Shown: positions 42,931-62,269 of the stretch, one piece after another
How positions within the stretch are numbered: the stretch's first letter is position 1
How the letters are laid out: the number at the start of each line of letters is the position of its first letter
From: Armillaria gallica
Lineage: Eukaryota; Basidiomycota; Agaricomycetes; Agaricales; Physalacriaceae
DNA length: 64,000 nucleotides
NCBI GenBank assembly: GCA_037576215.1
Contig: JBANDB010000001.1
Coordinates: forward strand, 8,308,001-8,372,000
Reading direction: 5' to 3'
Made by a program: the position numbers and the translations under genes
Notes under the pieces: generated by a model
What the model was told of the DNA's origin: nothing
Databases searched by the model: none
The model's input: the letters and a program-made list of their open reading frames with translations, nothing else

Positions 42931-43023
42931 ATATCGTCCAATCGCTAGCGCGTTACTGGCAGAGGCGGGGGTCCAAGGGTTCGATTCCCTACATTCAAGT
43001 TGCACGGAAATTTTGTGGTTTTT
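42931..43023 (+). ncRNA. Pol III-type tRNA-like unit U1
   Basis: A-box TCGTCCAATCG (42934), B-box GGTTCGATTCC (42978-42988), T5 at 43019-43023, 30 bases after the B-box. A-B gap 33, close to a normal tRNA. Confidence 0.55.
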
Positions 43024-43335
43024 GAGCGCCCTCGTTCGCGTACCTATCCCAGCTCGTAAATGAAAGGAGCAGCTGATCCGAGGCGTATAGACATATTTTG
43101 TTCCCTCGACTTCTCTTTAGCTTCAATCTTGTGATTGTGAAGACGCGCTCTAGGGAGGGTTTCTATTCCCCATATTTGAATTGAACTTCAGGGTAGTTAA
43201 TTCACCCTATGCTCACGAACCCGTAAAATGTATGCGTGCCCAAAGAAAGACGTCGATGTTAATCATTCTGAATCAAAGGAACACACAACCCGCAACAATG
43301 AGTCGGACGGACCACTGTTACTAGCCAGAAAGACT

Positions 43336-43425
43336 GTTCTGGTGCAAAGGTGCGATGAGTGTTACACATCGAACCCCGGAGTTCGATTCCCTGAGTACGA
43401 ATTCTGTAGGAAGGGTCATTGTTTT
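43336..43425 (+). ncRNA. Pol III-type tRNA-like unit U2
   Basis: A-box TGGTGCAAAGG (43340), B-box AGTTCGATTCC (ends near 43391), T4 at 43422-43425. The sequence after it is paralogous to the sequence after U11 (shared GAGCAATCAATTTTGGTCTC). Confidence 0.5.
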
Positions 43426-43587
43426 CAAGAGCAATCAATTTTGGTCTCGGGGCTTCTATTTCCAAGAGGGCTTATATTAACAGTCGCTCATACTTGACCT
43501 AGGAAAAAGGAAAACCACTAACCGCCTGAGAATTGAAGCTACAAAGCTGTCCCCTTGTGCTTAAATGCGTGTTTCATTGGTTTATCC

Positions 43588-43660
43588 GGTCTAATGGCGA
43601 GTCGGATACCTGGGGTCCAATTCCCTAGGGTGTTCATGATATGTTGTAGGTTAACCGTTT
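43588..43660 (+). ncRNA. Pol III-type tRNA-like unit U3, decayed
   Basis: GGTCTAATGGCG then GGGGTCCAATTCCC (B-box with one change); downstream only TTT. Paralogous to U12 (both followed by GGTGTTCAT). Confidence 0.35.
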
Positions 43661-43769
43661 CATGTCAACCTTAGCGAAGCAGATTCGTGACCGCTCTCCA
43701 TCGAAGCCAAGGAACCTATCCCCGATGGGCTTTTTATTGACGTAGAATTCATGTTGACTGATACCCTAT

Positions 43770-43851
43770 TAGATATGGTTGAGCGGCTGGTTGTGCACCT
43801 GGAGTTCAATTCCCCAGGGTACGAATAATTGAAGAGCTCACGTGACTTTTT
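43770..43851 (+). ncRNA. Pol III-type tRNA-like unit U4
   Basis: A-box TGGTTGAGCGG (43776), B-box AGTTCAATTCC (ends 43812), T5 at 43847-43851. A-B gap about 15, too short for an anticodon arm. Confidence 0.5.
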
Positions 43852-44100
43852 ACGCACTCGCACCGCATATTAGAAGATCATCGTGCTAGCCATCGCGAGG
43901 CTTTCCAACCCAGTACAGCTCTCTGATACTCACTAGGGTGTGTATTTATAATGGCTAGGTCGTCACTCTGATACGGCGGTTGCAATATCAAGTGTCCCTC
44001 TTTCTGGCTCAGTTCCATGTACCATCGTGTAAATTCCTTCAAACGCTCGCCGATGTATGAACATCGACACAGGAATGAATAAACCCTGTGGTTTCCATCC

Positions 44101-44197
44101 AGATCTGGTACAACGGCCATTGCTATGCTACACAGCGAGACCTGCGGTTCGATTCCCCGAGTACTTATTATAGAACTTCCTCGAGACTATTTCTTTT
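44101..44197 (+). ncRNA. Pol III-type tRNA-like unit U5
   Basis: A-box TGGTACAACGG (44106), B-box GGTTCGATTCC (44146-44156), T4 at 44194-44197. Paralogous to U14; both are followed by CTCTCCAGGTTCTTC-like sequence and GAGGGTT/GAGAGTTTAA. Confidence 0.5.
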
Positions 44198-45540
44198 CTC
44201 GCGGCAATGTCTCCTCTCCTCTCCAGGTTCTTCATTATTCGAGAGTTTAAGTCTGGAGGAAGCTCGACCTAAATGAAGAGACGAAAGCTGTCCTGAATAC
44301 ACGTTTTGTTGTCCTTCTTCTCGTTTATAACTTTTGTCTAGCGTCCCTGTATCCAGACTAGAAGTGTCGAATATCCATCCATATTGACGGCGTGTGGCTA
44401 TGATTCTGGATTTTATCCAGAGTAGCAACCGCCGAGAAGGTTCCACTCAAATCAAGTGCGCGCTGTCCACGATTGCGTTCCCTATATTGTAAGCACGCTA
44501 CAGACTCTATCGTGTTCGTATTCCTCATCTAATAGGTTCGTGATCGTCAAAGAATACCAAATATACTTCGTGAAATCAGTGGTGCTATCGGAATACAAAT
44601 CTGAGCAGCTCTTGCGTCAGAAGGTGTCGCTGGCCAACCTCTAGGACGAAGACCCTTTTGTCAGAGAGGGTGGTGTAACGGCGAGTCATACTACGTACGC
44701 AAACTCATTCCATACGTCACCCTTTTGCCTTGCGACGTTAGATTTGAACGCGTCAGGTAATCAACCACTGCTCCACATCAGCGGGACTACGGACACAGAT
44801 GTGTCGATATGACACATACGGACTGCTCATTCACATTTTTTGAACAGGCGTTTCTCTCATGTACCCTGTAGAAAGTGACCGGATACGACTCTGGGTGAGT
44901 TTTCTTTTCATTTCTGTTTTAGATAACGCTGTACTCATCAAGACTTAGGTACTTTTGAGCACGTTTCATTTTAAAGGCCACGATCTTGTGGGCTTTGCTG
45001 GTGCATGGATTCGATCCAGGTACGTTCTCTTGCGCTGCTACACTTGACGCAGACAGCTGACCGGTTTTATATTTAACAGATACATTCCGCTCGGGCTAGA
45101 AGCAAAGATACAAGCCTAACTTAGCGTAACACTACGACGTCCGGGAAAGGAGAGATCGGTACGTGTTTATAGCCGAGGTTACTCATCCCGGTGTTAATGA
45201 AACCTTTATAGGCTGACATTCCCAGTCCGACCTATGGTAATTCAAAGGTCGGATTATGCTAGAATTAAAATTCTAAGAAGAGTCCGAGCCGTTTGGTCGA
45301 ACGACAATTGCAAGGATGGTTGAGAAGCAGCTGATAGACCCATACAAGTAGGAAATGGATGAGTGTCACAACGGTGGGAAATCATTTGTTTCTCATCGCT
45401 CATTTTCAGTTCACTAACACGTTTTCTATTCATCTCGTCCCGCATCACTATCAAGTAGCGAGCCTTCCAGTACCCTATTGTCATCTTCGAAGTCCTTTGC
45501 TATGCGGACATCCTTCCTTACAAACGGTATAGCTATTCTA
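44198..45540. other. Decayed repeat segment with tRNA-like traces
   Basis: 44672-44684 has an A-box (GGTGTAACGGCG) without a clear B-box. The minus strand at 44745-44790 reads GATGTGGAGCAGTGGTTGA, then GCGTTCAAATC, an A/B-box pair without a T run. 44990-45020 has a B-box-like GGATTCGATCC. Otherwise paralogous to 61.9-62.2 kb. No protein gene. Confidence 0.4.
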
Positions 45541-45622
45541 TCCCCGATATTGCGTAACGGCTACCAAGTCGGTAGGGATTCAATTCCCTGTATCTAAATG
45601 TTCCAGGAAAATGTTACCTTTT
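45541..45622 (+). ncRNA. Pol III-type tRNA-like unit U6
   Basis: CCCCGATAT leader, A-box TTGCGTAACGG (45550), B-box GATTCAATTCC (45577-45587), T4 at 45619. Resembles tRNA-Glu with the anticodon arm missing (A-B gap 16). Confidence 0.55.
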
Positions 45623-45797
45623 CGCGTGATTCCTCTCTATTTTCGATGTGTTGCTCCTAGCAGTAAATTGCCATGCGGAGAAGGCTTATTCTACTCAATA
45701 TTCGTGCATTTCCTCAGGTACCCACATTCATGCTAAACCGATGGAAATTTATCCCCAGAATGTCTTGTTACTATTAGCTATATTGAACCTCTTCAGC

Positions 45798-45878
45798 GGA
45801 TATGGGGTAATCGTTCAGCGATTACCAATGTGGGTTCAATCCCCTATATTCGATTTGTTATAGACGCGTTCTCTTTTT
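45798..45878 (+). ncRNA. Pol III-type tRNA-like unit U7
   Basis: A-box TGGGGTAATCG (45803), B-box GGTTCAATCCC (45833-45843), T5 at 45874-45878. MITE M2 begins four bases after the T run. Confidence 0.5.
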
Positions 45879-45881
45879 CTA

Positions 45882-45992
45882 ATTGCGTCGCTCCCTTAGG
45901 ACTCTGATGTCGCCAAAAGCAGCCCCCTGGAAACGTTTCCAGGGGGCCCTAAAAACATCGATTTCGGCGCGTCGTCAAGCTTTAAACCCATT
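45882..45992. mobile_element. MITE M2 (111 bp, TA target site)
   Basis: Ends ATTGCGTCGCTCCCTTAG and AGCTTTAAACCCATT match the two ends of M1 in opposite orientation. TA on both sides (45880-45881, 45993-45994). The centre differs from M1 and contains a 26-base perfect palindrome (45922-45947, centre AAACGTTT). Confidence 0.7.
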
Positions 45993-45994
45993 TA

Positions 45995-46554
45995 ATCTCA
46001 TCAGTAGTACCCCTCGAGACAAAAACTAGATAGTACACCTCCTCTCAATGTCGAGGCCAAATCCGAAAATCACACAGTTTTTTTCTTAGGCTAAGGGGGA
46101 TGATTCAGTTCATTGAGAGAGGATTATTGTAAAGGATCTGCCACACGATGGGTTTTCAACCCAGAAATGAGTACGAGTCGGGTGTACATTGCCAGAGTAA
46201 GCAAGGTCAAAGACACGAAAGCATGGTAGAAGTAAGAGGTTAAGTGAGGAAAAGTCCGAAATCGGCACAGACGTAGCTGCCCGCAAATCATATGTCAACA
46301 TAGCAAAAGAAATGATGCAATAATAACTCCGTAGAAATTCGCATCCCTTAGAATTATATATTGAACGTCCCGTCTACTTTTGTCATGTCTCATAAGATTG
46401 ACAATCTCCGCAGTGAGTTCTACCCCCAAATGCTGATCCTCCTTTCAATTCTGCGGCGACACGGTACAAACGGCATCTCCGGGCAATAAGTAGAGCGCCA
46501 CAGAATTTACACTCCTGTTCGTTCTTACGAGTTGGTACTTGGTTCAACTATCTT
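45995..46554. other. Nothing recognised
   Basis: No gene, RNA unit or repeat boundary supported. Confidence 0.35.
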
Positions 46555-46645
46555 TGATATAGCGTAATCGCGAGGGCATTATTCGCCGTCGCAATTGGGT
46601 TCGATTCCCTATATTTAAATTACAGTCAAAGATCTCAGTTTTTTT
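46555..46645 (+). ncRNA. Pol III-type tRNA-like unit U8
   Basis: A-box TAGCGTAATCG (46560), B-box GGTTCGATTCC (46598-46608), T7 at 46639-46645, 30 bases after the B-box. Confidence 0.58.
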
Positions 46646-46714
46646 CATCACCTCCTCTTGCTTTTATAACTGTCGCCGGATGAACTCTAGGAAGAAAACC
46701 ACCTTGTCAGGAAG

Positions 46715-46803
46715 GATGGTGTAACAGCGAGTGTTACCATGTCCATCTGGGGTTCAATTCGCCGGGTCTGAATGGGTTTTGAATCTATACCAATCGTTTT
46801 TTT
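46715..46803 (+). ncRNA. Pol III-type tRNA-like unit U9
   Basis: A-box TGGTGTAACAG (46717), B-box GGTTCAATTCG (46751-46761), T7 at 46797-46803. Paralogous to U22; each lies just beyond the 3' end of a NAPE-PLD-like gene that runs towards it. Confidence 0.58.
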
Positions 46804-46964
46804 GCGGGAGTCATCGATTTTTGTCTCATGTATGTGTAGCTTGCGCTGAGATCAACAAAGATAGCTGATTCAAAGAGAGCGGCAGTTCGGAACCCCCGTC
46901 TCCTTCCATCTCTACTGGAATATACTGCCAGTCGCCTCATAGCAAATACCATTAGAAATATTTT

Positions 46965-48175
46965 GTCTCGCCGATATGGATGACAGAAAAATCACCGTCG
47001 TCTATACCAGTCTTCCTTCATTAGGATCCAGCTCCTAAAAGAGAATAGGCATATGGCCAAAGGGCAAAAAAGGGGGATCACCATCAAGGTATCGCAACTA
47101 CCTTCTTCGCTCTGATATCCTTGAAGATATGCATCTTGCCGCGCGCAATGTATAGCGGACATGAACCATCTCGGCTGGTATATCCTATGCAAATATCAAC
47201 ATTATAAAACAGCGGCAAGCATCTCACATACCTGATAGGAATCATCGCGAGACCACACCCGCTGAACCACTGGCGAATCTCATCGAATGCGGGGCGTACC
47301 AGTCCCGCCTGTCCGTCTCGGTATCACCGGCAAATAGACCATCTTACCCTCAGCCTCGCCGGCCCAGCTCGTCTGGAGAGTTTTCTTTGGTCAAGCATCC
47401 ATTGACCAGTAAAGTGCTGTGCGAGGGCGCAGCTAAGCTCGAAGGACGTTCCGGGTATCTCCACGTGCCGTGCGTCCCACCATTCGAATGTACACGCGTG
47501 TCCTTTGGGTATCCCGATGGATTCAAAGTGCTTATCGCTGCCTAGCGGACCAGAGAGGGTGGTTAACGTGTCGTAGTCTAGGCTAAGAAAGGTTAGCAGG
47601 CAAAGGCGCTGAGGATGGTGACGCGTACTGGTCAGAATGATTATGCTAACAACGACATTAGCCACGGCTTAGTCTGATGATAAGCTGCTCACCGAGATAA
47701 TGACTGCGTTTAGCTCTGGTATACCTTCGATCTTGCACGGCGGCTCGGTGTACTTCTTCGGACCGAAAGATTGGCTAGGCGATCACTGAAGAGGTTCGAA
47801 CAGCACCCGCGCACCTCTTCCTAGCGAGGTCACAAATGGCAGTTCGACGAGGAAAACACGCCTGATCCAACCACGTCGCCATGAATTTACCTTCATGCTC
47901 CTCTGCTGTGCTCCACATCGGCGGCTTGACAGCAATCCAACTCGTTCCGACTTTCAGCAGGGTGGGGCTGTTGCATGTGAGATAGATTAGTTATCAAACG
48001 ATTAGCAAGGAAAGATAGCTATGCACCATACTGAGCGCATCCATCCTCCCGTTCGTCCCTCACTAGTCCTCAGCTCGGCCAGTCATTGAACCGTAATGGC
48101 TTGTCAGATGTCTGGGCGACCCGCTTCCACTTTAACGTCCTAGTCAGCGACACAGATGGCGGCGGTTGAAAGCAT
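46965..48175 (-). pseudogene. NAPE-PLD-like metallo-hydrolase, copy B (decayed)
   Basis: Minus strand. Exon 1 begins MLSTAAICVAD at 48175. The exon 2 region at about 47700-47960 keeps FGPKKYTEPP-type sequence. HNHYDQ-type microexon trace near 47640; exon 4 at 47330-47600 reads HFESIGIPKGHACTFEWWDARHVEIPGTSFELSC and AQHFTGQWMLDQ. Exon 5 at about 47080-47190 keeps PRWFMSAIHCA with a frame change after it; exon 6 is mostly deleted. Frameshifts throughout. The family hydrolyses N-acyl-phosphatidylethanolamines with two metal ions in a beta-lactamase fold; fungal substrates are unknown to me. Confidence 0.75.
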
Positions 48176-48798
48176 AGCTGTACACGAAGCGGTGCTCAGT
48201 ATTCGAGCTGTCAGGCTCATTATGGAAAGGAATGGCATACATACCAATTTGTGCCTTGGTTCCTGGTGGTGCGTGCAAGTGCCTTGGCAACGATGACGTA
48301 CACCCATTAGATCAGAGCGTCTGCCGTGATGCCGGCTCTTTCCGATGTGCCCTTCTTCCAAACTCCCAGCCGATAATTTACTCAGTCTATCAGCCTCGAT
48401 TTGCGAGTTCTCAACGCCTCATATACATAATGCGGATGGAGTTACTTTCACAAGTATGCCGCTAACTAGCCCTGCATGAGAATGCGTCTTAGTCTGCGAG
48501 GCTTCAAGGTTATTTCCCGTCCATCCTGGTGTTGCACTACATGTCTGATCACTTCGAACCTCATTTTCTGATCCCAATGAGATATCGCTCTGGCTGAAGG
48601 GTTGTCTTCGTAATCTATAGTCTACTGTCTACCGGCCATATTTCAAACTGGGCTTCAAGTGAATGTTCATCGTGATGCCAAGTATCTAGACTACCCACGT
48701 AAGAGTAGATTAAGGACAATTGTTACGATTATCTCACGGATTTCCAGCCTACGTTTGGTGGCCGTGCGTCCTGGGGAGCAACGTTAACGCAGGACACA
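48176..48798. other. 5' flank of copy B and spacer
   Basis: 48176-48340 matches the upstream region of copies C and F. 48380-48798 shows nothing recognisable. Confidence 0.4.
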
Positions 48799-49746
48799 CC
48801 GGTCTCTCCGCCTCGTCCTCTCCATCCTTGACGGATCGGTACCCCGTATCGCCCGCGAAGTACACCTTCTTACCCTCACCCTCTACAGCCCAGCTCGACC
48901 AGAGGGTCTTTCCCTGGTCGAGCACCCCCGACCGGTGAAATGCTGGGCGGGAGTGCAAGTAAGCTTGAAGGACGTGCCGGGTATCTCCACGCGTCGTGCG
49001 TCCCACCAATCGAGTGTATGCCCGTGCCCGCTGGGTATTCCGATCGATTCGAAGTGCTTTTCATTTCCTAGAGGAGCGAAGATGTGCGGTGTGCGGGCCC
49101 GTTTGAAGAGCGTGGATAAAGTGTGGTTGTCTAGGCTAGGAGAGGTTAGTAGGTGAGTGCACTAAGGAGGACGGCACGTACTGGTCGTAATGATTATGCT
49201 AGCAACATCATTAGCCACGGCTTAGACCAAGAACAGGCTACTCACCGAGATAACAACTGCGTCCACCTCTGGTATGCCTTCGATCTTGCACGGCGGCTCG
49301 GTGTACCTCTTCGGACCGAAAGACTGGCTAGGCGAGCACCGATCGCTGAAGACAGGATCGAATAGTACCCTCGCGCCTCTCCCTAGCGAAGTCACAAACG
49401 GAAGCTCGACGAGGTAACACGGGTGTCCTAACCAAGTCGCCTTGATCTCGTCTTGACGCTCCTCTTCTAAACCCCACGTCGGTGTCCGCACAGGAATCCC
49501 AGCAGTTCCGACTTTGGGCAAAGCAGGGCTGTTACGTGTGACATGGCCAACCTATCTGAGGATTAGCGACGGAAGACCCGGACGAAAAACACGTACTATG
49601 CGAAGAGTATCCATCCTCCCATTCGACCTCCAGCTCGGCCATGGATTCTGGAACCATAAAGGCTTGTCAGATGTCCAATGCGCTGGTCGACTTCCTTTCT
49701 CTTTCTTGTCCTCGTCGATGACACGGATGGCGGCGGTTGAAAGCAT
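48799..49746 (-). pseudogene. NAPE-PLD-like metallo-hydrolase, copy C (3' truncated)
   Basis: Minus strand, very similar to copy F. Exon 1 (49746 down) MLSTAAIRVIDEDKKEKG...PLWFQNPWPSW. Exon 2 reads [40 protein letters not shown] and EVDAVVIS. A 17-base microexon encodes HNHYD plus two bases of the next His. Exon 4 starts LDNHTLSTLFKRA and runs to DRPVCPA-like sequence, with a one-base shift in HFTGRG-LDQGK. It breaks off at about 48799, losing the AIHWGT-type C-terminal half. Upstream sequence to 50030 matches the 63.74-64.0 kb flank of copy F, so B/C/F arose by segmental duplication. Confidence 0.8.
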
Positions 49747-50215
49747 AGCTGTAGATAAATCTGCGCTCAGTCTTAGAGCTGTTTTATATCAAGGAAAGGG
49801 ATACGGAACCCGGTTAGCCATAGACATGGTGGGCGTGCGCAAGTGCCGCGGAAACCATGACGTACACCGGTCCGATGACGTGTCCCAAAATGACAAGGGC
49901 GGTGCCGGCCACAATTCTTCGTCGACTTGCGCTTTCTCAAACGCCTAACTCACCGGATGGATTAACGATCAAAAGCCTTCAGAATCGGCGTCAGGGCTCA
50001 CACTTATTTTCAATCACGTACATCCTGATCTATTTTCGTCGCCTTGGAGCAAGTAGTTCATTTTAGCTGTCGCGCTGTCACTTCTCCATATCTAGGACTC
50101 TGTTTAGACCACACTTGTCTCTGACTTAGTTCGACGGACCATGGATCATTTTCACTCCAGTTCTTGACTTATAATCAGTAGTATCTTGTATAGTGAGTGA
50201 GTATTCTATTCCAAG
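49747..50215. other. 5' flank of copy C
   Basis: 49747-50030 is nearly identical to 63738-64000, the flank of copy F (shared CACCGGATGGATTAACGATC). Probably the promoter region. The rest, to 50215, holds nothing recognised. Confidence 0.5.
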
Positions 50216-50303
50216 TCGGACATCGTGTAACGGTTATCACACCGCTCTGGGGTTCAATTCCATCTATCCGTTTCGTTCACTGCATCCACGTTCTGCTTTT
50301 TTT
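50216..50303 (+). ncRNA. Pol III-type tRNA-like unit U10
   Basis: Best tRNA-Glu resemblance: TCGGACATCGTGTAACGGTT, then B-box GGTTCAATTCC (50251-50261) and CTATCCG closing towards the 5' TCGGA. A-box TCGTGTAACGG (50223). A-B gap 17, so no room for an anticodon arm. T7 at 50297-50303. First of the array with a period of about 220 bp. Confidence 0.62.
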
Positions 50304-50455
50304 CAAGCTCCGAGTTCACGCTCCGAGGTCGAACTTTGTGGCTCTTTGAGGGATGTTGCAGAGTTTCGACTTTTCAAACGCTCGCATACCAGTGGAGAAC
50401 GAAATCACCATTCCAGATGAACACACGAAGATTCCTAACCTAGGCCATCCTCCAT

Positions 50456-50548
50456 CCAGATCTGGCGTAACGGTGAGAGTTACATATCGAACCCCTGGGT
50501 TCAATTCCCTAAGTACGACTTCCAAGTGCCGAGTGAATAGTTCTTTTT
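50456..50548 (+). ncRNA. Pol III-type tRNA-like unit U11
   Basis: Perfect A-box TGGCGTAACGG (50463-50473), B-box GGTTCAATTCC (50498-50508), T5 at 50544-50548. Confidence 0.6.
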
Positions 50549-50672
50549 CAGGAGCAATCAATTTTGGTCTCGGGTCTTCTATTTCAAAAAAGCATCACCT
50601 CCGATTCGAGGCAAAGAAGTAACCACCTTAGAATCGGAGTCAGGAAACTATCCCAGATGTGCTTTGAATTTG

Positions 50673-50756
50673 TGCTCTAATGGTCTAACGGGTGAGGTGG
50701 ATGCCTGGGGTTCGATTCCCTACGGTGTTCATAGCATCTGTGAACAGGCCTTTTTT
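50673..50756 (+). ncRNA. Pol III-type tRNA-like unit U12
   Basis: A-box TGGTCTAACGG (50681), B-box GGTTCGATTCC (50709-50719), T6 at 50751-50756. Between B-box and T run lies a hairpin TGTTCA...TGAACA (about 50726-50746). Confidence 0.6.
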
Positions 50757-50870
50757 ATGCTTTCAGGCTAGACGACCTCAGCGGGGCAAATAAGTGATGG
50801 CTCTGCGTCGGAAGCCATCCCCAAAGTATTTGTATTGATCTTACAGACATAGGTTTGACTTGTACCCTAC

Positions 50871-50951
50871 CGGATATCGTCCAACGGCTCGCCGGACGCC
50901 TGGGGTTCAATTCTCTATGGTACAAATCACTGGTTGACGGCACATCTTTTT
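50871..50951 (+). ncRNA. Pol III-type tRNA-like unit U13
   Basis: A-box TCGTCCAACGG (50877), B-box GGTTCAATTCT (50904-50914), T5 at 50947-50951. Confidence 0.58.
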
Positions 50952-51089
50952 GCACGAGCGTATTGCTGCAACATTTTTGGTTCGCAGAGGGACGTTCGGC
51001 TCCACTTTTCAACACCTGCCAAGTATGTATGGACGTCGACATAGGAATAGGCGACCCAAATGTTGCCGGATTTCTAAGTTACTCCTTAT

Positions 51090-51176
51090 CCGGATCTGGT
51101 ACAATGGCGAGTTCACGCATCGAACTCTGGGGTTCAATTCCCTCTGTACTATTGAGGTCGTAGGGTTCTTTTTTTT
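51090..51176 (+). ncRNA. Pol III-type tRNA-like unit U14
   Basis: A-box TGGTACAATGG (51097), B-box GGTTCAATTCC (51131-51141), T8 at 51169-51176, the longest terminator of the set. Confidence 0.62.
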
Positions 51177-51312
51177 GTCAGAAGGTCTTGTCTCGTCTCT
51201 AGGTTCTCGATTATTAGAGGGTTCAAATCTGGAGGAATCCCAGAGTAACTGACGCGACGAAGCTGTCCTGGATGTACGATTTGTTCCTCTGCCTCTCCGC
51301 TATTACATTGTC

Positions 51313-51399
51313 ATATATGGTCTAACGGCATGTTTGATGCCTCGTGTTCAATACCCTAGGGTACGAATCCGTGATACCGAAAGTTAACATACCTTTTTT
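51313..51399 (+). ncRNA. Pol III-type tRNA-like unit U15
   Basis: A-box TGGTCTAACGG (51318), B-box TGTTCAATACC (51345), T6 at 51394-51399. Confidence 0.55.
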
Positions 51400-51530
51400 C
51401 GCACCAGCGCGCTGGATACGTCGCGACATTTATATTGTTTCTGCCCTACACAACGCAAATATCTTCTCCTACCCTTCCTTGTGGGCTATGGTTTTGCGGC
51501 AGAAATACTTACGTCCTCTTGATGTACTTC

Positions 51531-51606
51531 GGATATGCCAACGTCTGCGGATGGGGATTGGATTCTCTATACCAAAGTGATACTTTACAGACGGCGTACC
51601 ATTTTT
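51531..51606 (+). ncRNA. Pol III-type tRNA-like unit U16, weak boxes
   Basis: A-box hardly recognisable; B-box-like GATTGGATTC (51556), T5 at 51602-51606. Included because its position fits the 220-bp period and the 36-base B-to-T distance. Confidence 0.4.
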
Positions 51607-51699
51607 CCAGTAGCCCAGTGTCAAGCTGACGCGGCTCGTAGCGATGAATTCCATCACAACCACGGAAACTATCCTCAATACATTGTCAGTCATCTCGTA

Positions 51700-51780
51700 C
51701 TTATTCTAAGGGCGAGTAGGGATGCCTGGGGCTCGATTCCCTATGGGTACGTATTGCAGATGTGGAAATCAAATCGTTTT
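51700..51780 (+). ncRNA. Pol III-type tRNA-like unit U17, weak A-box
   Basis: B-box GGCTCGATTCC (51730-51740), T4 at 51777-51780. The A-box side is degraded. Confidence 0.4.
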
Positions 51781-51957
51781 CATGAGTTGCACCGTTTTTA
51801 CTAACAGGTATGTATCGGTAAGTAAGACGTCGAAAGCCAGGATTAACCGCTTCGATAGTAGGATCACTGTTGGAAATTCATGTGCTCAATCCTTGCAAGT
51901 ACGTATTCAAGGTTGACGCGGGGTCTGTACTTATTCCTTTCATGCTGCTGTGTACGC

Positions 51958-52058
51958 GGGTGTGGCGTAACGGCCGTTATTACGATAATCCTAGTAGGAG
52001 TTCGAGTCCCCCTAGGTCGTATGAATGTTGTCAATGGTCATTGGTACTTGATTCTTTT
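51958..52058 (+). ncRNA. Pol III-type tRNA-like unit U18
   Basis: A-box TGGCGTAACGG (51963-51973), B-box AGTTCGAGTCC (51999-52009), T4 at 52055-52058. A-B gap about 25. The last good unit of the array; a further A-box-only trace is near 52345. Confidence 0.52.
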
Positions 52059-52479
52059 CCTCCGTCCGACCGCTGCATGCACGGGTTTGAATTTTATGAA
52101 GTTCTCAACATGGTGGAGTTGAGAACAAAGGGTCAGCGCGATTTACTAGCGACATGTTCCTTGAGCCTCAATTTCCAGTCGATTAGCATCATCGTGCTCC
52201 AATTGCTCTGTCAGGCGAAGACTCAATTCCTTCATTCGAATACAATTCCAACTCGTTTTGAATCACCTCAGCGGAATAATAAGGGAACCCTGTACACCAA
52301 GCGTTAACCGTCCCTGGGAACTACTTCATGATTCTGTTGTTATGTAACGGCAAATCGTACTGATGCAAGTACGGGGTTGGTATATTTGGCATGAGCTATC
52401 AATGATATGTGCAGCTGGTACTTCGATGTAGAGCAATCATCTTCCTGCAGTGTTCTCTGATATTAAATAGAGTATGGTA

Positions 52480-54165
52480 AGCAATGAAAATATATTTTCC
52501 GAGGAAAGTTCCCGTCGTCTACACCAATCATCTTACACTCTACAGCCAGCCTCTTCGATCTCCCACATTCTCGAGATACACGTCCTAGATGGGAATAAGC
52601 ATAGGGATAAAAGGTATAAAAGACGACTCACCACCAACGCATAACAATCGCCTTTCTCGTCTGTGCATCCTCGACATGCGGACTCTATCGCACAATGTAT
52701 AGTGGTCATGAACCAACTTTACTCATAAGCGCTAATCACTGGAAGAGCATAAACGCAAACGAACAGTGCACATACCCGATGGTCATCAAACCCGGCTGGA
52801 ATCCGCTTCGCAATCTCCGTGAAAGCCTGGCACACCGGTGTTTCCTCCTCCTTACCTCCTCCATCTTCGATGCGTGGCTAGCAAAGTACACCATCACCCG
52901 AGAGTCTTTCCCGAATCGAATGACCCTAAACAGTGCAATAGTAGGTGCAACTTGAAGCACGTTCTGGGCATTTCCACATGTCGGGTGTACCACGAATCGA
53001 GTGTACGTGGATGTCCGTTACACTATTCAAAATGGTTTTTGTTCACAAGTGGAGTGAAGTGTTGCCTTTGTGGTGCGCGGATCTGTTCAAAGAGCATGCC
53101 TACGGTGGGCGAATCTATGCTATGACATGTGAGCCTGGTAGCGGGCTGGCGACGATGACGTACTGGTCATAATAGGTAAAGCACTAGTTCACAGACGGGC
53201 ATCAGTCGCTGGGTCAAAAAGTAGCCTTGCCTTCCTCCTTAACAAGGGGACAAACAGAACTCGACGAACGAACGCGCCTGGTTTGACCAAGTCGGCGTGA
53301 AGCTCTGTATCCCATGTCGACGTCTTAGGTTGACTACGAAAGAATAGATCCAAGATCAGCCCTTCAGCGGTAGTATCCCCGAGTCCCAAACACGCACCAT
53401 ATTCAGCTAATCCATCGTCTCCTTTGTCTTTCAGGTCGGCCGTAGATTCTGGAACCACATCGACGTCGTGGTAGCCTTTACAATTCTCACCCCTCAACCG
53501 GTCCGATGCGGAGGGAGTACAAGTCAACTTGAAGACTTCGGGTGTCTCCATGCATTGAGCACCCCACCTGCTGATTGTATGAGCCTGTCTTTTGGGTGAC
53601 CCGGTCAGTTCATCGTTTCCTCGCAGGGTGAAGATGTGCGGTGTGAAGCACTGTGCGAGAGCACAAGTTAGCTTGATGAATGTTTATCAAAGTAACTCCA
53701 TGTGTCGGCCGTCCTACGAGTCAAGTGTATGTACGTGACCTCTTATCAGCTTAAAATAATCATCGGTTTGAGCAGAGGGGAATATATTGGGTGGGCAGGT
53801 CCTTTTGAAGAGTGTCTAGCAGGTGACGGAGCTAAAGAGAACAACACATATTGGTCGTAAGGATTACGCTAAGAACATCATTACCCAAGGCTAAATCCAA
53901 TGAGCTGTTCACCGAGATAACGGCTCCATCGACCTCTGGAATCTTGTGCAGTGGGTTGGTGTACCTCATTGGGCGGAGAAGCTGACTAGGCGAGCATCCG
54001 TCGCGGAAGACAGGGTCGAACAGTACCATTGCACTTCTCCCTAGCGGAGCCACAAACGGCAGATAGACGAGGAGACATGCGTGGGTCAACGACGTCGCCT
54101 CGATGTCGCCTTCATGCTCCTTCTCTGTGCCCCACATCGGTGACTTTACGAGAATAAAGGCTGCT
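52480..54165 (-). pseudogene. NAPE-PLD-like relics, copy D (at least two overlapping copies)
   Basis: Minus strand. 3' exons at 52500-52720 and exon 4 sequence at about 52950-53150. Exon 4-like sequence then recurs at about 53510-53640 and 53650-53830, so at least two, perhaps three, damaged copies are fused. 53870-54140 is a better exon 2: STWD/EEH..., YLPFVAPLGRSAMVLFDPVF, PSQLLRPMRYTNPLHKIPEVD and a HNHYD-like microexon remnant near 53860. Frameshifts throughout; exon 1 is missing. Confidence 0.65.
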
Positions 54166-54240
54166 GCAGAATTCGAAACACAATAGCGTAGATGGAGGGA
54201 AATAAGCTACATGCCCCTCGAATGAGCTGCTAGTACGGTT

Positions 54241-54322
54241 AAAAAATGAAGAACGATACTGAAGAACGATTTGAATATTGAGAATTGAACCCCCCACCGA
54301 TGATGTGCTAGCGGTTTGGCTG
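54241..54322 (-). ncRNA. Pol III-type tRNA-like unit U20 (minus strand)
   Basis: On the minus strand: B-box GGTTCAATTCT (54292-54282) followed by T6 (54246-54241), 35 bases apart. A-box CAGCCAAACCG near 54321 is weak. Confidence 0.5.
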
Positions 54323-54463
54323 TATTATCACATTATGTGCGCAAAATGGACGGTTTACAGTAGAATCCGTACTTCCTGAGGAGACCCACATGACGGATAC
54401 CTTGACTTCTTTAACCAATGATCTTCGAGCAAGCCCTCACACTGGAACCAGGTGTCCATCCGT

Positions 54464-54551
54464 AAAAAAGAGGAGAATGCGATAAGGAAAATGTCGGCGA
54501 TAGGGAATTGAACCCCAGAACGAGTTTACTAACGGCTACGCGATATCCGAC
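54464..54551 (-). ncRNA. Pol III-type tRNA-like unit U19 (minus strand)
   Basis: On the minus strand: 5' TCGGATA, A-box TCGCGTAGCCG (54543-54533), B-box GGTTCAATTCC (54514-54504), closing TATCGCCGA that can pair with the 5' end apart from two extra bases, T6 at 54469-54464. A-B gap 18. A tRNA-Glu-like outline without an anticodon arm. Confidence 0.6.
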
Positions 54552-54640
54552 TACCGAATAGAATACTTGGCTACGCACTCTCAGCCCTTTCTGTAAGACC
54601 AGCTTGAAAAATGAGAGCAGCTTTCTCTATAGTCATGCTT

Positions 54641-55582
54641 TCCAACCGCCGCCATCCGTTTCGTGGACGAGGAAAGGAAAGCAAGGTTGGTTGGCTAGCA
54701 CATTGAACGTTGAACCTCTGGGTCCTAGAAATCGCGGCCGAGTTGGAAGGTGAACATTGGCGACATGGATGGATCATGTGTCTTTCCTCGTCGAGCTGCC
54801 AGTTCTGGCTTCACTGGGGAGAGGTACAAGGGTGCTCTTCATTCCTGCATTCAGCAATAGGTGCTGGCCTAGCAAGTTTCTCGGTACACCGGGCCGCCGT
54901 GCAAGATTGAAGATATTCCAGAAGTGGATGATGTCGTGCTGTTGTTAGCATAATCATTGTGATCAGGACGTGTCGTCCTCCTTGATCCCGTCACACTCTA
55001 ACGTCTTTTGGCCTAGACAACCACCCTTTATCTGCCATATTCAAACATGTCCACTCGCGGCTCGTCTTCGGTAAAAAAGAGCACTTTCAACAGATTGGAA
55101 TACCAGACAGTCACGGCCGGTGGGACGCACAACGCGTAAAGATACCCGGCATTTCATTTAAGCTGACATGCTACCAAGCACTTCACTAATCGGAGGCTTC
55201 TCGACCGGAGTCGCACTAAGATCTATTGCTCCGGTGATACAGGCTACCGATCTGCTACGGGTAGAGATGATGAGGCCAAAAGACCAGTATCTTCTCTCCT
55301 GCCAGGTGACTGAAGAGCGTTTCATTGGGCTTGATATAGCGATGATAGATGATTCATATCGACTATATATTTTGCGCTGCAGGGATATCAGCCCGAAAAG
55401 GTCGTCACGACGTATTGGGGGTGTGTCTTCTTTACGCCTTTTGTCACAATGCTGACTCTCATCTAGCACCTGGATCCTAACGACGGAAGAAGTTACCGAG
55501 CAACCAAAGAGACTAGCTGAAGAGTGCAAGACGATTGCTATCCATGACAGCAACTTTCTTGTCAGCGATGTCGACGAGACGT
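54641..55582 (+). pseudogene. NAPE-PLD-like relic, copy E (plus strand)
   Basis: ATG at 54641 begins MLSN, with the exon 1 sequence continuing one frame off. Exon 2 at 54785-54950 reads LVELPVLASLGRGTRVLF. Microexon CATAATCATTGTGATCA (54949-54965) keeps HNH.D. Exon 4 is mostly lost (55020-55165), with ERFIGLDIAMI at about 55315-55347. Exon 6 at 55470-55582 reads TWILTTEEVTEQPKRLAEEC and SDVDET. The only long copy on the plus strand, facing copy D across units U19/U20. Confidence 0.65.
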
Positions 55583-56093
55583 AATATTTCAAATACTCTA
55601 TTCAATATCAGACGACTGGCAATATATTCCGGTGGATATGACTGTCAGATGTGCACTCCAATGCGACACACATTTCGCCTCAGTTTCCTCTGTTAATTCT
55701 AGCGCATGAAATAGAAAATCAATGAATCCTGCAATAACAAGTGCTAGAGATGTGCAAAGATACACCGCATTACCCTACCTGACGAGGACAGTTTGTTATA
55801 GAACTCGCGGATAGGTATTTCCCGCCATGCTTTGTGAAAAAACGGGCATCTTCCAGTACTGGGAAATCGCAAACCTAAGGGATTCTACCCTCGCCAATAA
55901 ACGCTAAGCTATTGTACCTATCCGCTGAAGAGGACGTATACTGTATGATTAACATTGTATTTTCTTCGGGGGTAGACTCGGACCAGTCGCACGAGGCAGT
56001 GTAGTTCCTAGTGAGGGGATGATGGACAGAGTAATGACCAGATCTAGCGCCAAAGCAAGGTTCTTCGTCACTGCAGGCAAACTTGTTGAGATC
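55583..56093. other. Nothing recognised
   Basis: No gene or repeat boundary supported. Confidence 0.35.
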
Positions 56094-57794: not shown

Positions 57795-58629
57795 TTGCAC
57801 TGGGGACAGAACAAGATCTCGGTTTGAACGACTGATTTTATAGGATACATGTCTATAATGTAGCATGCTGTCGCGCTACAGCATTCACAACAGCGCGCTC
57901 ATGATAAATCTGTCATAGTTTGTATAAGTGGGAAGATGAGAAGGAAGGAATGAGCGGGCCAAGCCTTTGAAACGATCCAGGGCAATGCTGAAGCGGTCTT
58001 GGCCTCCAAGCGACCTTGGTTTTGTATGGCGCTTTGTAGGGCTTGGCCTAGCTTGGCCGGGCATTCAACCGTATGCCAAGAGGAAAGGACGGGATAATAT
58101 TCCTTGGCCGTGTGAACGTGAGGATATGTATATCAATAAAACGCAATTCACATCAACAAAGTGTGTACGGATGTGCCGAAAAGATGACCAAAGCCAGCAG
58201 TGCTGAGGCCTTCGAGGGATTCAAAGACGATGATTGGACCGTTAATGGAAGTTATTGAGAAATTTACAGTAATGAAGCGTTCAATAAGTATCAGAGATAG
58301 TCGTACACAGTGAAGTCGCGTGCAACGTGTCAATATCATTACGATGCAGCGCTAAAATCTAAATATGGCGCAAGTCCCGGCTTTAACCTTTTTGGGATCC
58401 GGTAATTCCCTAATTCCCTACCAAACTACCATTGACGCATGCTGATGTAAGAAAATTCGGAACCAAGGGGATCTTTCCTCGGCTGAAGGCACGATAGTTC
58501 CCATGTTTACATCATTTCCTGTCTTGTATTTGGCGACCGCCGACAAACTCTGATTTCTTTTGGTAACTAATCTCCAAGACCTTACCGTCTTCGACAATTG
58601 AAATTTTGGTCTGTATTAGATGCAGAATT
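57795..58629. other. 5' flank of DUF4436 copy 3, nothing recognised
   Basis: Short frames only; the plus-strand frame 57967-58206 is not recognised. Confidence 0.35.
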
Positions 58630-59085
58630 GTTGTCTACAAAAACCCGGCCTGTTTGGTATAATCATCTCTATGCAAATTTTCATTTCGTCTCTTAGTCGC
58701 GAGAGCAATGGAAAGGGAACCATTATGTAGAGGAGCCCCCTCATATCCGCCCGGCGACTCGATTGAGGTAAACAGAAAGCAAATAAAGTGCAAGTCGAGG
58801 AGGAGCCGCAGCAGAAGGACCGGCACCGTGGCAGAAGCTTGTCACATCATCTGATGAGTCTACGTTATCGTTGCCGGTCCACTTGCGCAGACCCACCATG
58901 AACCAAAGCTCGAATTAGTATGTATGTCGTTCCTTTGTATAATAAAAGCTCACAGACTGAGCACCGCTTCATCTACAGCTATGCTATCAACCACAGTGAT
59001 CCGCATCGTTGATGAGGAAAAGAAAGGGAAATGACATCGCTCAGCGTATTGGACCTCCGTCAAGCCTTTATGGTTCCGGGCACGT
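58630..59085 (+). pseudogene. 5' fragment of a NAPE-PLD-like gene (copy G)
   Basis: ATG at 58981 opens MLSTTVIRIVDEEKKGK, a stop, then WTSVKPLWFRA, ending where the inverted-repeat transposon begins (59086). 350 upstream bases match the flank of copy H (8240-8616). The rest of the gene is not found beyond the transposon. Confidence 0.65.
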
Positions 59086-60477
59086 AGAATTTTGCGTTTT
59101 CCCCTTGCACGCTTGCGTTCCCTTGCGAGTTTCCGTTTGCATTTGCGTTTGCGTTCATATGCACACGTTTGAATAAATTGCATTTGCATTCGATCAAATG
59201 CATTTGCGTTTCGAGTGTGACATCGTTTGCGTGCGTGACATGATCGACTCTCTCGAGTCTTTGATGCATATCCTCAGTAGACCTGTGCATTGTGTGCTGT
59301 ATATCCAGTTGCAACATGTAGAAATGTCGATGATAGTCGTGAGCCCGGCAATAGGTACAGCCAACATCTCAAACTGATCGGGCATCTAAGAACCCATTTC
59401 GGAACTCACGCTCTACCGCCACATCTACATTGATCATCTGTCTTGCGCTGTAATCCTTCTATGCTTATGATACTGTTTCTCCAACAGATTTAGATTACCT
59501 CAATAGTTATTAGTCCCAACATTTATTTCTAGCCAAATGGGGCCGGAATATGATAAAGAGGAGATAGCGAAATGGCACAGAACCGAGCTAGAGAAGGAAG
59601 AGGCGAGGGAACAAATGCAAAGGCGAACATGCCCAAGACATACATTGCTGAGAAAGGGCACGAGAAAGCGGCGGGCTGCATCCAAAATCCCAGCAGAATC
59701 GGTCGAGCTAAGACCCACCGATGGTAGCGAGGAATATCAGCCACCAGCTAAGCATACCCGTCACAAATTGAGGGATGGTGATTCTAACTCAGCAGATGAT
59801 GGTCTATAGAAAGTAAGTACGCCAATAAGTACACAGATTAATCAAACGAGACGGTAACGGGTAGAAAGCTGGCGAGACCGGAACGGTTGAACTCGATTTA
59901 AATTAGTGTCAAACGCAAATGTGACAGGTCTGTCACATTTGCGTTCATTTGCGTTCACCTTGTAACGCATGCGTTAGATATTTTTACCATTTGCGTTCGT
60001 GCTTAAACACTTGCGAGAAATGTTAGAACGCATGCGTTCACTTTCAAACGCATGCATAAATCATGTCGACGCATGCGTTTGTGATTGAAATGCTTGCGTT
60101 ACCTCCATTGGTGCATGCATTCACATAATTTGACTCGTGTGCAGGCTTCCACTGATTTTCTGATAGTATTGTGGTGCAAACAGATCATCCGACCTTCTGA
60201 GGGGGCATCGTAGGTAGGTAAATTATTGTTTATTATGTCTCCAATACTGAACTGGACACTGAAATCTATCCGGAACAGTGGTGAAAACTCTCAAGGATCA
60301 AAAAAGCATCGGAAGTAGTCTGGTGCGTATATTTCCCTCGCATTCATATGTACCAACATGCATTGATGATGTCATAAACACATTGATAGGAAACGCAAAT
60401 GATTACAAATGAAACGCAAATGAAATGCAAATAAACGCAAGTGAACGCAAGCGTGCAACTCAAAAACGCAAAATTCT
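59086..60477. mobile_element. Inverted-repeat DNA transposon (1392 bp) with TTTGCGTT motif arrays
   Basis: Ends are inverted repeats: AGAATTTTGCGTTTT, then TTGCACGCTTGCGTTC on the left; the reverse complement of the right end reads the same with four mismatches in a 4-base linker, then diverges after about 45 bases. The word TTTGCGTT or AACGCAAA and its variants (GCATGCGTT) are repeated at both ends and in a central block (59905-60115). A 90-residue basic frame (59537-59809) is unassigned; no transposase recognised. Target duplication not resolved. Inserted in NAPE-PLD-like copy G. Confidence 0.75.
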
Positions 60478-61784
60478 CCTGGCTCTATTGTTAACAGCAA
60501 CATCCCCTATACAGAATGCTCCCAGGAGTCAGGATGTCCAACATCAGTGAGCCGATCTTACATTCGCATAAGTTTCAGCAGCAGCAAGGTCACATACGAG
60601 AGATAGCTTAACCCTGCATGTGGCGTTGCCTCTACTAGGCTCCGCAGACCTGGATCTCAGTGATCGATATTGGATAAAGTGCAAAACAAAAAGATTTACA
60701 ATCTGAACAGCGATGAGCTCTGCGATGTTGGCTTATAATGCAGAAAGCCCGAGACTGTCGTCGAGAAAGGAAGTTAAAGAAAGGAAAATGCATTGAATGG
60801 CGCTTACCTTGATCATGGAACCACATATGACGGACGACCGTCCACGAGCAGGAAAACAAAGTGGGTCCCCCATCAAGAGCGGCCCTTCTGCTCGTCTCGC
60901 TCATGCTCTCGCTGGGGATACTAGGGACTATAAGCGCAAGAATAATCAAAACAGCATCACCTTCACCCACCGCGAGGTTTGTCCGAAGGTTATAGCATGC
61001 TACTGCTATCAGAAGCTTGTTAGATGGAAGGGTAAAAGTAGACGTAGTATCGACTTACAATGTCCAGGCGATGAGCAATCGTCTACAGACGGTATAGCCC
61101 CAGTGCATCGTTCCATCCTGTCTGTATCGAAAAGGTACACGAAGCAGGTCCAGATTCTCTTGCCGAGATAACGATCTTGCCATCTCGGATACCAAAAGTC
61201 TATATCGGAGGCATATAAGGAAAAGAATGAACGGAGACATACGATGCATGGTTTCCATGATGAAGCGATGCGTTCACCCATCAACTTCGGATATGACGCG
61301 TAGAAAACGCCTCAAATCGACGGCTAGACGTGTGCCTGATCAATGGCCTTTGCAGCAACTATGAAGGTCAGTACGGCTCACCCGATGGTTTACATATCTC
61401 TGAATCCGCTTCCCGAGCTGCTCCGAGAGTTGGGACGCCAGCCACAACAGACAGACGTACAAGAGCCATTGAGTGAGCAAAACCCAAGTCCTAGTGAACG
61501 AGAGAACACCGAGGAGCTACCGTGTCAACATCTAAGGCACTGAAAACTCCGAGTTAGTGATAAAACAACACTGGAATCGAGTTACTACAAAGCTGAGGTG
61601 AGTGTGGGAACGAACAAGGATACACGATGATGGCGGTGAGAGAGGAATAAGCGACGCGCCGGTGCCTGATCATGCCAAATAGGGTCATCACCTCTTGGCC
61701 TTGAGTTTGAACACCGGCGTGCACCATCCTCCCAGATAAGAAGAAGGCTAAGATACACATACTCATCTTTGTATTTACATTCGC
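60478..61784. other. No recognised gene
   Basis: Frames up to 124 residues on both strands (60797-61171 plus; 60635-60970 minus) overlap one another and match nothing known. Some splice-like signals occur, so an unknown decayed gene is possible. Confidence 0.3.
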
Positions 61785-61869
61785 AGGTGGTGTAACAGCT
61801 ATTGCTATCACATATAAGTAGGAGTTCAATTCCCTGTATCCGAACTATTTAGCAACTTGCCAGCTTTTT
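61785..61869 (+). ncRNA. Pol III-type tRNA-like unit U21
   Basis: A-box TGGTGTAACAG (61788), B-box AGTTCAATTCC (61823-61833), T5 at 61865-61869. CTGTATCCGAA closing side. Confidence 0.55.
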
Positions 61870-62177
61870 GATGAGCGTAGTCTGCACGTGGCTCTAATTC
61901 TGAATTTTATCTCGAGTAGCGACACCAAGAAGGTTCAATTCTCCATATTCAATGAAGCGCGCACTGCCCAAGATCACGCTCCCCATATTGTGAGTATGCC
62001 ACAGAATTTGACGTGTTTGTTCTCATCATCTAGTAGGTTCGTGGTCTTCAAAGTATACCAGACCAATCAGTAGTGCTCTCCGAATACAAATCTGAGCAGC
62101 TCGTTATTTCATCTCCTCGTCTTGCGTCAGAAGGTGTCCCTGGTCAAACTCTAGGACGAAGACTATCTTGCCAGGGA

Positions 62178-62269
62178 GGGTGGTGTAACAGCGAGCAATA
62201 TCATGTCCACCTAGGTTTCAATTCCCCGCGTCTGAATTATATGCGGCGATTGCGAAATACTTGGTTTTT
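62178..62269 (+). ncRNA. Pol III-type tRNA-like unit U22
   Basis: A-box TGGTGTAACAG (62181), B-box GGTTTCAATTCC (62214, one extra T), T5 at 62265-62269. About 125 bases beyond the stop of copy F, facing it. Confidence 0.52.

What the first reader, a model, noticed from the sequence alone, without database searches (positions are those of the whole stretch)
42931..62269. A family of 21 tRNA-like units with A-box, B-box and a phased T-run terminator
Units U1-U22 (U3 decayed) each have a tRNA-type B-box and, in most, an A-box, then T4-T8 at 27-45 bases after the B-box (values 30, 30, 34, 37, 31, 30, 30, 35, 35, 35, 31, 32, 27, 38, 36, 36, 45, 34, 35, 31, 39). Sixteen of 21 T runs have five or more T. 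In most units the A-B gap is 15-24 bases, less than in a tRNA without an intron, so there is no room for an anticodon arm although several still look like tRNA-Glu (GCGTAACGG...GGTTCAATTCC). This is the pattern of genes for RNAs of about 85-100 nt made by RNA polymerase III: a tRNA-like head without anticodon plus a 3' tail. I know of no such family.
Basis: partly seen in the sequence, partly recalled or inferred. Interest (0 to 1): 0.9.

Follow-up and report, generated by a model that had tools for sequence, protein, structure and literature searches.

The report
Anticodon-less tRNA-like genes with 22-nt tails
A fungal genome (closest protein matches are from Armillaria) holds same-strand arrays of short tRNA-like units, most with too little space between their promoter boxes for an anticodon arm and with a T run at a narrow distance behind them; they are likely transcribed by RNA polymerase III and predicted to release small RNAs of about 22 bases, a layout for which the literature searches made here found no description.

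Summary
In 42.9-62.3 kb, 18 plus-strand and 2 minus-strand units have an A box, a close-set B box and a T run; the whole-window scan gave 24 rows against 1.5 in shuffled windows. Genome-wide, B box + 26-37 bases + T5 gives 340 forward rows against 0 for the reversed pattern, and 45 when the gap is 45-56. 72 of 74 neighbouring units share a strand. The A-B gap (median 22; 32-50 in 19 normal tRNA genes) leaves most units no room for an anticodon arm. The trailer before the T run has median 22 nt, sd 5, against 11.5, sd 8.5, in 20 normal tRNA genes, and does not depend on head length. In 29 paralogous pairs the head and T run are conserved above the flanks; the trailer is not. Pol III transcription is strongly suggested but untested. 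I propose release of the trailer by RNase Z, as for Neurospora milR-4, and Argonaute loading. Against this: no targets found for three trailers, weak folding of the window's own heads, no RNA data.

The parts
42926..43014 (+). unit: A box, B box at 42978, trailer 11 nt by first T4
   Evidence: CM R1 E 0.028
43332..43425 (+). unit: B box at 43380, trailer 20 nt, T4
   Evidence: CM R1 E 0.027; paralogue of 50455-50548
43768..43851 (+). unit: B box at 43803, trailer 22 nt, T5
44098..44197 (+). unit: B box at 44146, trailer 26 nt, T4
45542..45622 (+). unit: B box at 45577, trailer 20 nt, T4
45795..45878 (+). unit: B box at 45833, trailer 19 nt, T5
   Evidence: CM R1 E 0.45
46552..46645 (+). unit: B box at 46598, trailer 19 nt, T7; best structure-model score in the window
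   Evidence: CM R1 E 7e-9 but in its training set
46709..46803 (+). unit: B box at 46751; T4 close by and T7 at 46797-46803
   Evidence: T7 read
50215..50303 (+). unit: tRNA-Glu-like head (by eye), B box at 50251, trailer 24 nt, T7; trailer unique in genome at up to 3 mismatches
   Evidence: CM R1 E 0.0013, not in training
50455..50548 (+). unit: B box at 50498, trailer 24 nt, T5
   Evidence: CM R1 E 0.51
50673..50756 (+). unit: B box at 50709, trailer 20 nt, T6
   Evidence: CM R1 E 0.31
50869..50951 (+). unit: B box at 50904, trailer 21 nt, T5
51089..51176 (+). unit: B box at 51131, trailer 16 nt, T8
   Evidence: CM R1 E 0.6
51310..51399 (+). unit: degenerate B box at 51345 (2 mismatches), T6
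51694..51780 (+). unit: weak A box, B box at 51730, trailer 25 nt, T4
51955..52058 (+). unit: B box at 51999, trailer 34 nt, T4
61780..61869 (+). unit: B box at 61823, trailer 20 nt, T5
62173..62269 (+). unit: B box at 62215, trailer 28 nt, T5
54464..54551 (-). unit on the other strand: B box at 54514, a T4 at once and a T6 further on (54469-54464)
   Evidence: T6 read; CM R1 E 0.08
54241..54330 (-). unit on the other strand: B box at 54291, trailer 23 nt, T6

Best explanation
These units belong to a genome-wide family of short tRNA-like units, most without room for an anticodon arm, which are likely transcribed by RNA polymerase III from their internal A and B boxes and predicted to be cut by RNase Z behind the tRNA-like head, so that each would release its own small RNA of about 22 nt plus a few U, likely loaded into Argonaute. 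Shown here: boxes, close spacing, phased T run, narrow trailer length independent of head length, array organisation, conservation of head and T run above the flanks but not of trailer sequence, and many Argonaute-domain and RdRP-domain places in the same genome. Inferred: transcription, RNase Z cleavage, Argonaute loading. A head kept for promoter and processing, in front of a guide-sized stretch that drifts freely, is the pattern expected of individually promoted piRNA-like loci, here built on Pol III. In one subgroup (C7, C6, C3) the trailer is instead a conserved hairpin, as in tRNA-linked miRNA precursors.
For: T-run phasing genome-wide and in loci chosen without regard to T runs (45 of 78). 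Of 105 units with a good A box in such loci, 96 have T4+ in the 38-base search window against 13% of random positions; trailer median 22, sd 5.2, against 11.5, sd 8.5, in 20 normal tRNA genes (Mann-Whitney p 5e-5, Levene p 6e-5). Trailer length does not correlate with head length (rho -0.01, n 89); medians in five cluster groups are 20-24 (group D was fetched by its T runs). 29 disjoint paralogous pairs picked by flanks alone: A box 0.91, between boxes 0.86, B box 0.95, acceptor 3' strand 0.82, T run 0.84, trailer 0.67, upstream 0.72, downstream 0.75. Structure model R1 finds 59 places at E<=0.01 besides its 27 training rows, many of them relatives of those rows, and none in L009 and L023-L028. 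Covariation in 27 well-formed units: 80% paired against 54 and 48% when slid by one column. Hairpin trailer with both-side changes at 3 of 9 pairs in ten C7/C6/C3 sequences, which I had picked for their visible hairpin. Piwi domain: 38 matches at about 18 places; RdRP: 60 matches. Precedent: Neurospora milR-4 comes from a Pol III tRNA precursor and needs RNase Z (PMC3547838, passages).
Against: No RNA evidence of any kind. Three trailers searched with 2-3 mismatches allowed have no good second match in the genome, so no target is known. The trailer is unstructured in groups A-E (mean z -0.4 to 0.5); heads fold only slightly better than shuffles (mean z 0.05 to -0.78), and the T arm is in the best fold of only 46 of 117 heads. 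Acceptor pairing beats within-group permutation clearly in two of five groups (A 0, B 4, C 180, D 629, E 279 of 1000); the window is group E, and model R1 finds only 9 of its 20 units at E<=1. The model also misses three box-scan units in L023. A trailer that evolves at the flank rate is also what a discarded trailer would do; the hypervariability seen in hand-picked pairs was not general (mean percentile 0.49 of flank windows; trailer against upstream flank p 0.14). Normal tRNA genes also have trailers of up to 25 nt, and a T as first trailer base is common to both (57 of 96 units; 13 of 20 normal genes). 13 of 126 units have an A-B gap large enough for an arm. Some Piwi and RdRP matches on different contigs have equal scores (C2/C5, C14/C17) and may be recent copies or two haplotypes, which would inflate all genome-wide counts.
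Confidence: 0.4

Rival explanations
1. Pol III genes whose product is the tRNA-like body or the whole RNA of about 85 nt (a decoy, scaffold or regulator of tRNA enzymes or Pol III); the trailer is cut off and discarded.
For: Head conserved, including the stretch between the boxes (0.86 against 0.72, p 3e-6) that no promoter box covers; trailer sequence not conserved; no targets found for three trailers.
Against: Does not explain why trailer length is narrower and longer than in normal tRNA genes and independent of head length; weak head folding in groups D and E; heads differ widely between arrays.
Confidence: 0.3
2. TFIIIC-binding arrays that act on chromatin (boundary or tethering elements like yeast ETC sites or fission-yeast B-box clusters); RNA is not the point.
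For: Dense B-box clusters; strand-coherent arrays, the window lying 86-150 kb from a TTAGGG contig end; B box is the most conserved part (0.95).
Against: A terminator-like T run at a narrow distance is not needed for TFIIIC binding yet is kept (0.84 against 0.67 in the trailer, p 0.005); A boxes are kept as well; acceptor strands are conserved above the upstream flank (p 0.008, 0.015).
Confidence: 0.13
3. Relics: arrays of decaying tRNA genes multiplied by segmental duplication, with no present function.
For: Paralogous blocks (47 pairs kept); tRNA-Glu-like heads by eye; some units have lost the T run or a box; weak folding in group E.
Against: Head features more conserved than flanks in 29 pairs picked by flanks; in 16 of 17 usable pairs the partner of a T5 unit still has a T4 run.
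Confidence: 0.1
4. A mobile element: a tRNA-derived SINE, or TRIM elements with a tRNA-like LTR (Helenus).
For: Both carry tRNA-like Pol III promoters and Helenus occurs in fungi (PMC10886601, abstract and outline seen).
Against: Heads and trailers differ between units; the three trailers tested are unique or nearly so in 86 Mb and one 22-base head end occurs only 8 times; 72 of 74 neighbours are on one strand. Target-site duplications were not searched.
Confidence: 0.05

Closest known systems
Neurospora crassa milR-4 (tRNA-linked milRNA, Pol III, RNase Z)
   Same: Fungus; tRNA moiety in front of a small RNA; Pol III; RNase Z makes the 5' end (PMC3547838, passages).
   Different: There two normal tRNA-Ala genes lie around the small RNA and its star strand at a single locus; here most heads lack room for an anticodon arm, trailers are short and unstructured, and units stand in arrays.
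MHV68 TMERs (tRNA-miRNA-encoding RNAs)
   Same: tRNA-like element followed by a small-RNA part, Pol III, tRNase Z (PMC4838037, passages). The C7/C6/C3 subgroup has a tRNA-like head plus hairpin.
   Different: TMERs are 200-250 nt with two pre-miRNA hairpins, eight per virus; the window's units are about 85-100 nt and show no trailer hairpin.
Caenorhabditis type I piRNA (21U-RNA) loci
   Same: Over 10,000 independently transcribed tiny genes clustered in two chromosome domains, each with a promoter motif (abstracts in the listing). That the guide itself drifts freely there is recalled.
   Different: Pol II with an upstream motif and a primary transcript of about 28 nt (abstract); no tRNA-like head (recalled).
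TFIIIC-only sites (ETC, fission-yeast B-box clusters)
   Same: Clusters of B boxes.
   Different: Here A box and T run are kept too. Recalled; C. elegans TFIIIC sites seen only in a listing.

Membership tests
tRNA gene | scores as tRNA by standard models | tested here: not met
   ARAGORN 0, Rfam 0 at gathering cut-off in the window
tRNA gene | anticodon arm | tested here: not met
   A-B gap median 22 against 32-50 in 19 normal tRNA genes; 13 of 126 units at 33 or more; some C7 members have an arm-like stem by eye (A2), not in the consensus fold
tRNA gene | A box, B box, T-run terminator | tested here: met
tRNA gene | 7-bp acceptor stem | tested here: inconclusive
   paired in the selected 27; beats permutation in groups A and B only
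Pol III gene | transcription by Pol III | not testable with these tools
   no RNA or ChIP data
tRNA-linked miRNA precursor (milR-4, TMER) | hairpin behind the tRNA part | tested here: not met
   trailers of groups A-E unstructured; met in the ten C7/C6/C3 sequences picked for it: 9-bp stem, both-side changes at 3 pairs
tRNA-linked miRNA precursor (milR-4, TMER) | RNase Z and Dicer processing | not testable with these tools
   needs RNA or enzyme tests
SINE / TRIM | near-identical dispersed copies | tested here: not met
   one head end and three trailers searched genome-wide; strand-coherent arrays
SINE / TRIM | target-site duplication | not tested
   not searched
piRNA-like guide locus | guide-sized RNA bound by an Argonaute | not testable with these tools
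   Piwi-domain places exist; no RNA data
piRNA-like guide locus | matches to targets | tested here: inconclusive
   none for 3 trailers genome-wide; 110 trailers against the 260 kb held locally gave fewer shared words than control segments; foreign targets not testable

The most novel reading that the evidence does not exclude
A fungal counterpart of the piRNA repertoire: hundreds to over a thousand individually promoted guide genes in chromosome-scale arrays, in which a stripped-down tRNA serves as internal Pol III promoter and RNase Z handle and hands over one freely drifting 22-nt guide per gene to an expanded set of Argonautes, for defence against mobile elements or mycoviruses.
Probability: 0.25. 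Interest if true: 0.95.

Novelty: new variant of a known kind. Interest (0 to 1): 0.8.

Why it matters
If transcribed, this would be a very large family of Pol III genes that standard annotation misses (ARAGORN and Rfam see nothing in the window). It would show tRNA architecture reused, minus the decoding arm, as a promoter and processing cassette for short RNAs, and would make Pol III-made small RNAs in fungi, for which I know one RNase Z-dependent tRNA-linked locus (Neurospora milR-4), testable on hundreds of loci by a single small-RNA library.

Tried and rejected
1) Hypervariable trailers under diversifying selection: suggested by nine hand-picked groups of paralogues; in 32 disjoint pairs the trailer is an average flank window (mean percentile 0.49, below the middle of its flank windows in 17 of 32; both partners had to carry a T4 run), and in 29 flank-picked pairs it is only slightly below the downstream flank (p 0.027) and not below the upstream one (p 0.14). 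Dropped as a claim. 2) Transcription-associated mutagenesis as the cause of trailer divergence (recalled idea): no clear excess to explain. 3) Targets of trailers: none in locally held DNA beyond paralogues, none convincing genome-wide for 3 trailers (best other places 3 mismatches in 22 and 2 in 20). 4) Link with the metallo-beta-lactamase copies beside the window's arrays: found also in the adjoining L022 and L023 but not in L009-L020, so probably incidental. 5) A constraint on total transcript length instead of trailer length: not supported (rho -0.01). 6) Long trailers as such being unusual: no, 8 of 20 normal tRNA genes lie at 18-28 nt too; only the narrow spread and higher median differ. 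7) phase counts included loci picked by their T run and were replaced; averages included retrotransposon pairs and overlapping pairs and are not used. Rows dropped before counts: B-box-like motifs at window 13-25 kb and loci L021, L024; L049-L068 in the counts called unbiased.
Full report
What is there. The window lies at 8,308,001-8,372,000 of contig C1 (8,457,901 bases, ending in TTAGGG repeats) of an unnamed 86-Mb, 28-contig genome. Its metallo-beta-lactamase-like ORF is closest to Armillaria proteins (A. luteobubalina 83%, A. mellea 79%, over 79% of the query), so the organism is an Armillaria or near relative. Between 42.9 and 62.3 kb, 18 plus-strand and 2 minus-strand units show an A box, a B box and a T run in order; the scan gave 24 rows in the whole window against 1.5 in 60 shuffled windows. 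ARAGORN and Rfam report nothing in the window.

Genome-wide. The B box GGTTCRANTCC occurs 1060 + 905 times against 148 + 149 for the same motif read backwards. With T5 at 26-37 bases there are 340 forward and 368 reverse rows (reverse rows count long T runs more than once) against 0 and 1; with T5 at 45-56 bases 45 and 59 rows against 6 and 1. The calls list only the first 100 or so places. On C1 these gather at 0.01-0.14, 0.45-0.79, 5.9-6.35, 6.6-6.8 and 7.4-8.0 Mb, and the window and L022 add 8.35-8.38 Mb. Candidates on other contigs are listed; of those I read only L067, L068 and the 20 stretches. Normal tRNA genes are part of these totals (for example the tRNA-Ser gene of L034); one search scored 63 tRNA candidates and listed 54. 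Equal-scoring matches on C14 and C17 and on C2 and C5 hint at recent copies or two haplotypes, so the counts may be inflated.

Anatomy. One search started from 174 B-box places (43 of them in L049-L068, nearly all picked by a T run); 126 have a good A box and a T4+ run (30 of them in L049-L068). In these the gap from A box to B box has median 22, and 13 are at 33 or more; 19 normal tRNA genes of this genome gave 32-50. Head length is 62-63, trailer 22, total 84-85 (117 and 89 units). Leaving out L049-L068, 96 of 105 good-A-box units have T4+ in the search window against 13% of random positions, 67 have T5+; trailer length has median 22, sd 5.2, IQR 20-25, against median 11.5, sd 8.5 in 20 normal tRNA genes fetched of the 54 listed (ARAGORN ends may be off by a base or more). 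Group medians are 22, 24, 22.5, 21 and 20 (group D comes wholly from loci picked by T run). Trailer and head lengths are uncorrelated. Neighbouring units share a strand in 72 of 74 cases, with median spacing 410 bases.

Structure. An alignment of 27 well-formed units (chosen for good pairing, so biased) pairs in 80% of cells against 54% and 48% when slid by one column; 0 of 500 shuffles reach that percentage. The model built from it finds 99 matches at E<=1 in 254 kb, 86 at E<=0.01, of which 59 are not training rows though many are their relatives; none lie in L009 or L023-L028, although L023 holds three units by the box scan. In the window it finds 9 places at E<=1 and 2 at E<=0.01, one of them a training row. 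Own against permuted acceptor pairing inside five cluster groups is clear for A (0 of 1000) and B (4), not for C (180), D (629) and E, the window's group (279); the outer T-stem pairs stand out only in C (2 of 1000). Heads fold only slightly better than shuffles, with the T arm in 46 of 117 best folds. So the fold is firm in some arrays and eroded in others, while boxes, spacing and T run are kept in all five groups.

Selection. Among 127 units (L049-L068 included) I picked 29 disjoint paralogous pairs by flank similarity alone. Identity: upstream 0.72, acceptor 5' strand 0.80, A box 0.91, between boxes 0.86, B box 0.95, acceptor 3' strand 0.82, trailer 0.67, T run 0.84, the 40 bases after it 0.78, further downstream 0.75. 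Head and T run are constrained, the trailer is not. In a second test 16 of 17 usable pairs keep a T4 run in the partner (of 19 pairs printed, two matched a neighbouring motif and are left out). Hand-picked pairs had suggested trailers that change much faster than flanks; the wider tests do not bear this out.

A subgroup. On C7 (eight units read) and once each on C6 and C3, units carry a trailer that folds into a hairpin of 9 predicted pairs, with both-side changes at three of them in ten sequences; I chose these because the hairpin was visible. Some also show an anticodon-like stem by eye, which the consensus fold does not contain. This is the layout of MHV68 TMERs and suggests that at least here the RNA, not only the DNA boxes, is under constraint.

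Mechanism. I take Pol III transcription as very likely from A box, B box and kept terminator. RNase Z acts on the acceptor-T-arm part of a tRNA and does not need the anticodon arm (recalled), and in Neurospora it frees milR-4 from a tRNA precursor made by Pol III (PMC3547838). The same step here would free an unstructured RNA of about 22 nt plus U. The genome has about 18 places with a Piwi domain (38 exon-level matches) and many RdRP matches (60), so a small-RNA pathway is at hand. That trailers drift while their length is held fits individually promoted guide loci; it fits equally a discarded trailer whose length matters for termination or processing. I therefore give the full model 0.4 and the statement that these are Pol III-type genes about 0.85.

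Literature. Ten searches of the open full-text library listed no description of such a family in Armillaria or elsewhere. Seen: passages of PMC3547838 and PMC4838037; abstract and outline of PMC10886601; the others as listings only. Most subscription papers and preprints are not covered.

Noticed in passing
window 13444-13690 and 24265-24637; similar stretches in L021 and L078, single similar hits on C2, C4, C7: A B-box-like motif (GGTTCAAACCC, last copy GGTTCAAATCC) is repeated five and seven times at 48-73 bases beside or inside what looks by eye like a Ty3-type retrotransposon (ORFs at 18.2-25.6 kb); it lacks the A-box/T-run layout of the units.
   Followed up: partly
window 46955-47930, 48785-49527, 52505-54152, 54760-55590, 62397-63518; L022, L023: Several copies, some clearly broken up, of a metallo-beta-lactamase (PF12706) gene lie between the window's units and in the adjoining stretch; none in L009-L020.
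   Followed up: partly
C7 2.5-4.3 Mb (L080-L087), C6:5338350 (L088), C3:2851390 (L089): tRNA-like heads followed by a conserved hairpin trailer and T run, resembling tRNA-linked miRNA precursors.
   Followed up: partly
genome: C2, C3, C4, C5, C6, C8, C12, C14, C18, C20; RdRP at C9:2.30-2.34 Mb and elsewhere: About 18 places with Argonaute (Piwi) domains, five of them on C12, and 60 RdRP matches: a large RNAi repertoire, some of it perhaps counted twice.
   Followed up: no
C14/C17 and C2/C5: Equal-scoring matches suggest duplicated segments or two haplotypes in the assembly.
   Followed up: no
40 bases after the T run, all groups: The stretch just behind the terminator is more conserved than the upstream flank (0.78 against 0.72, p 0.013); reason unknown.
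   Followed up: no
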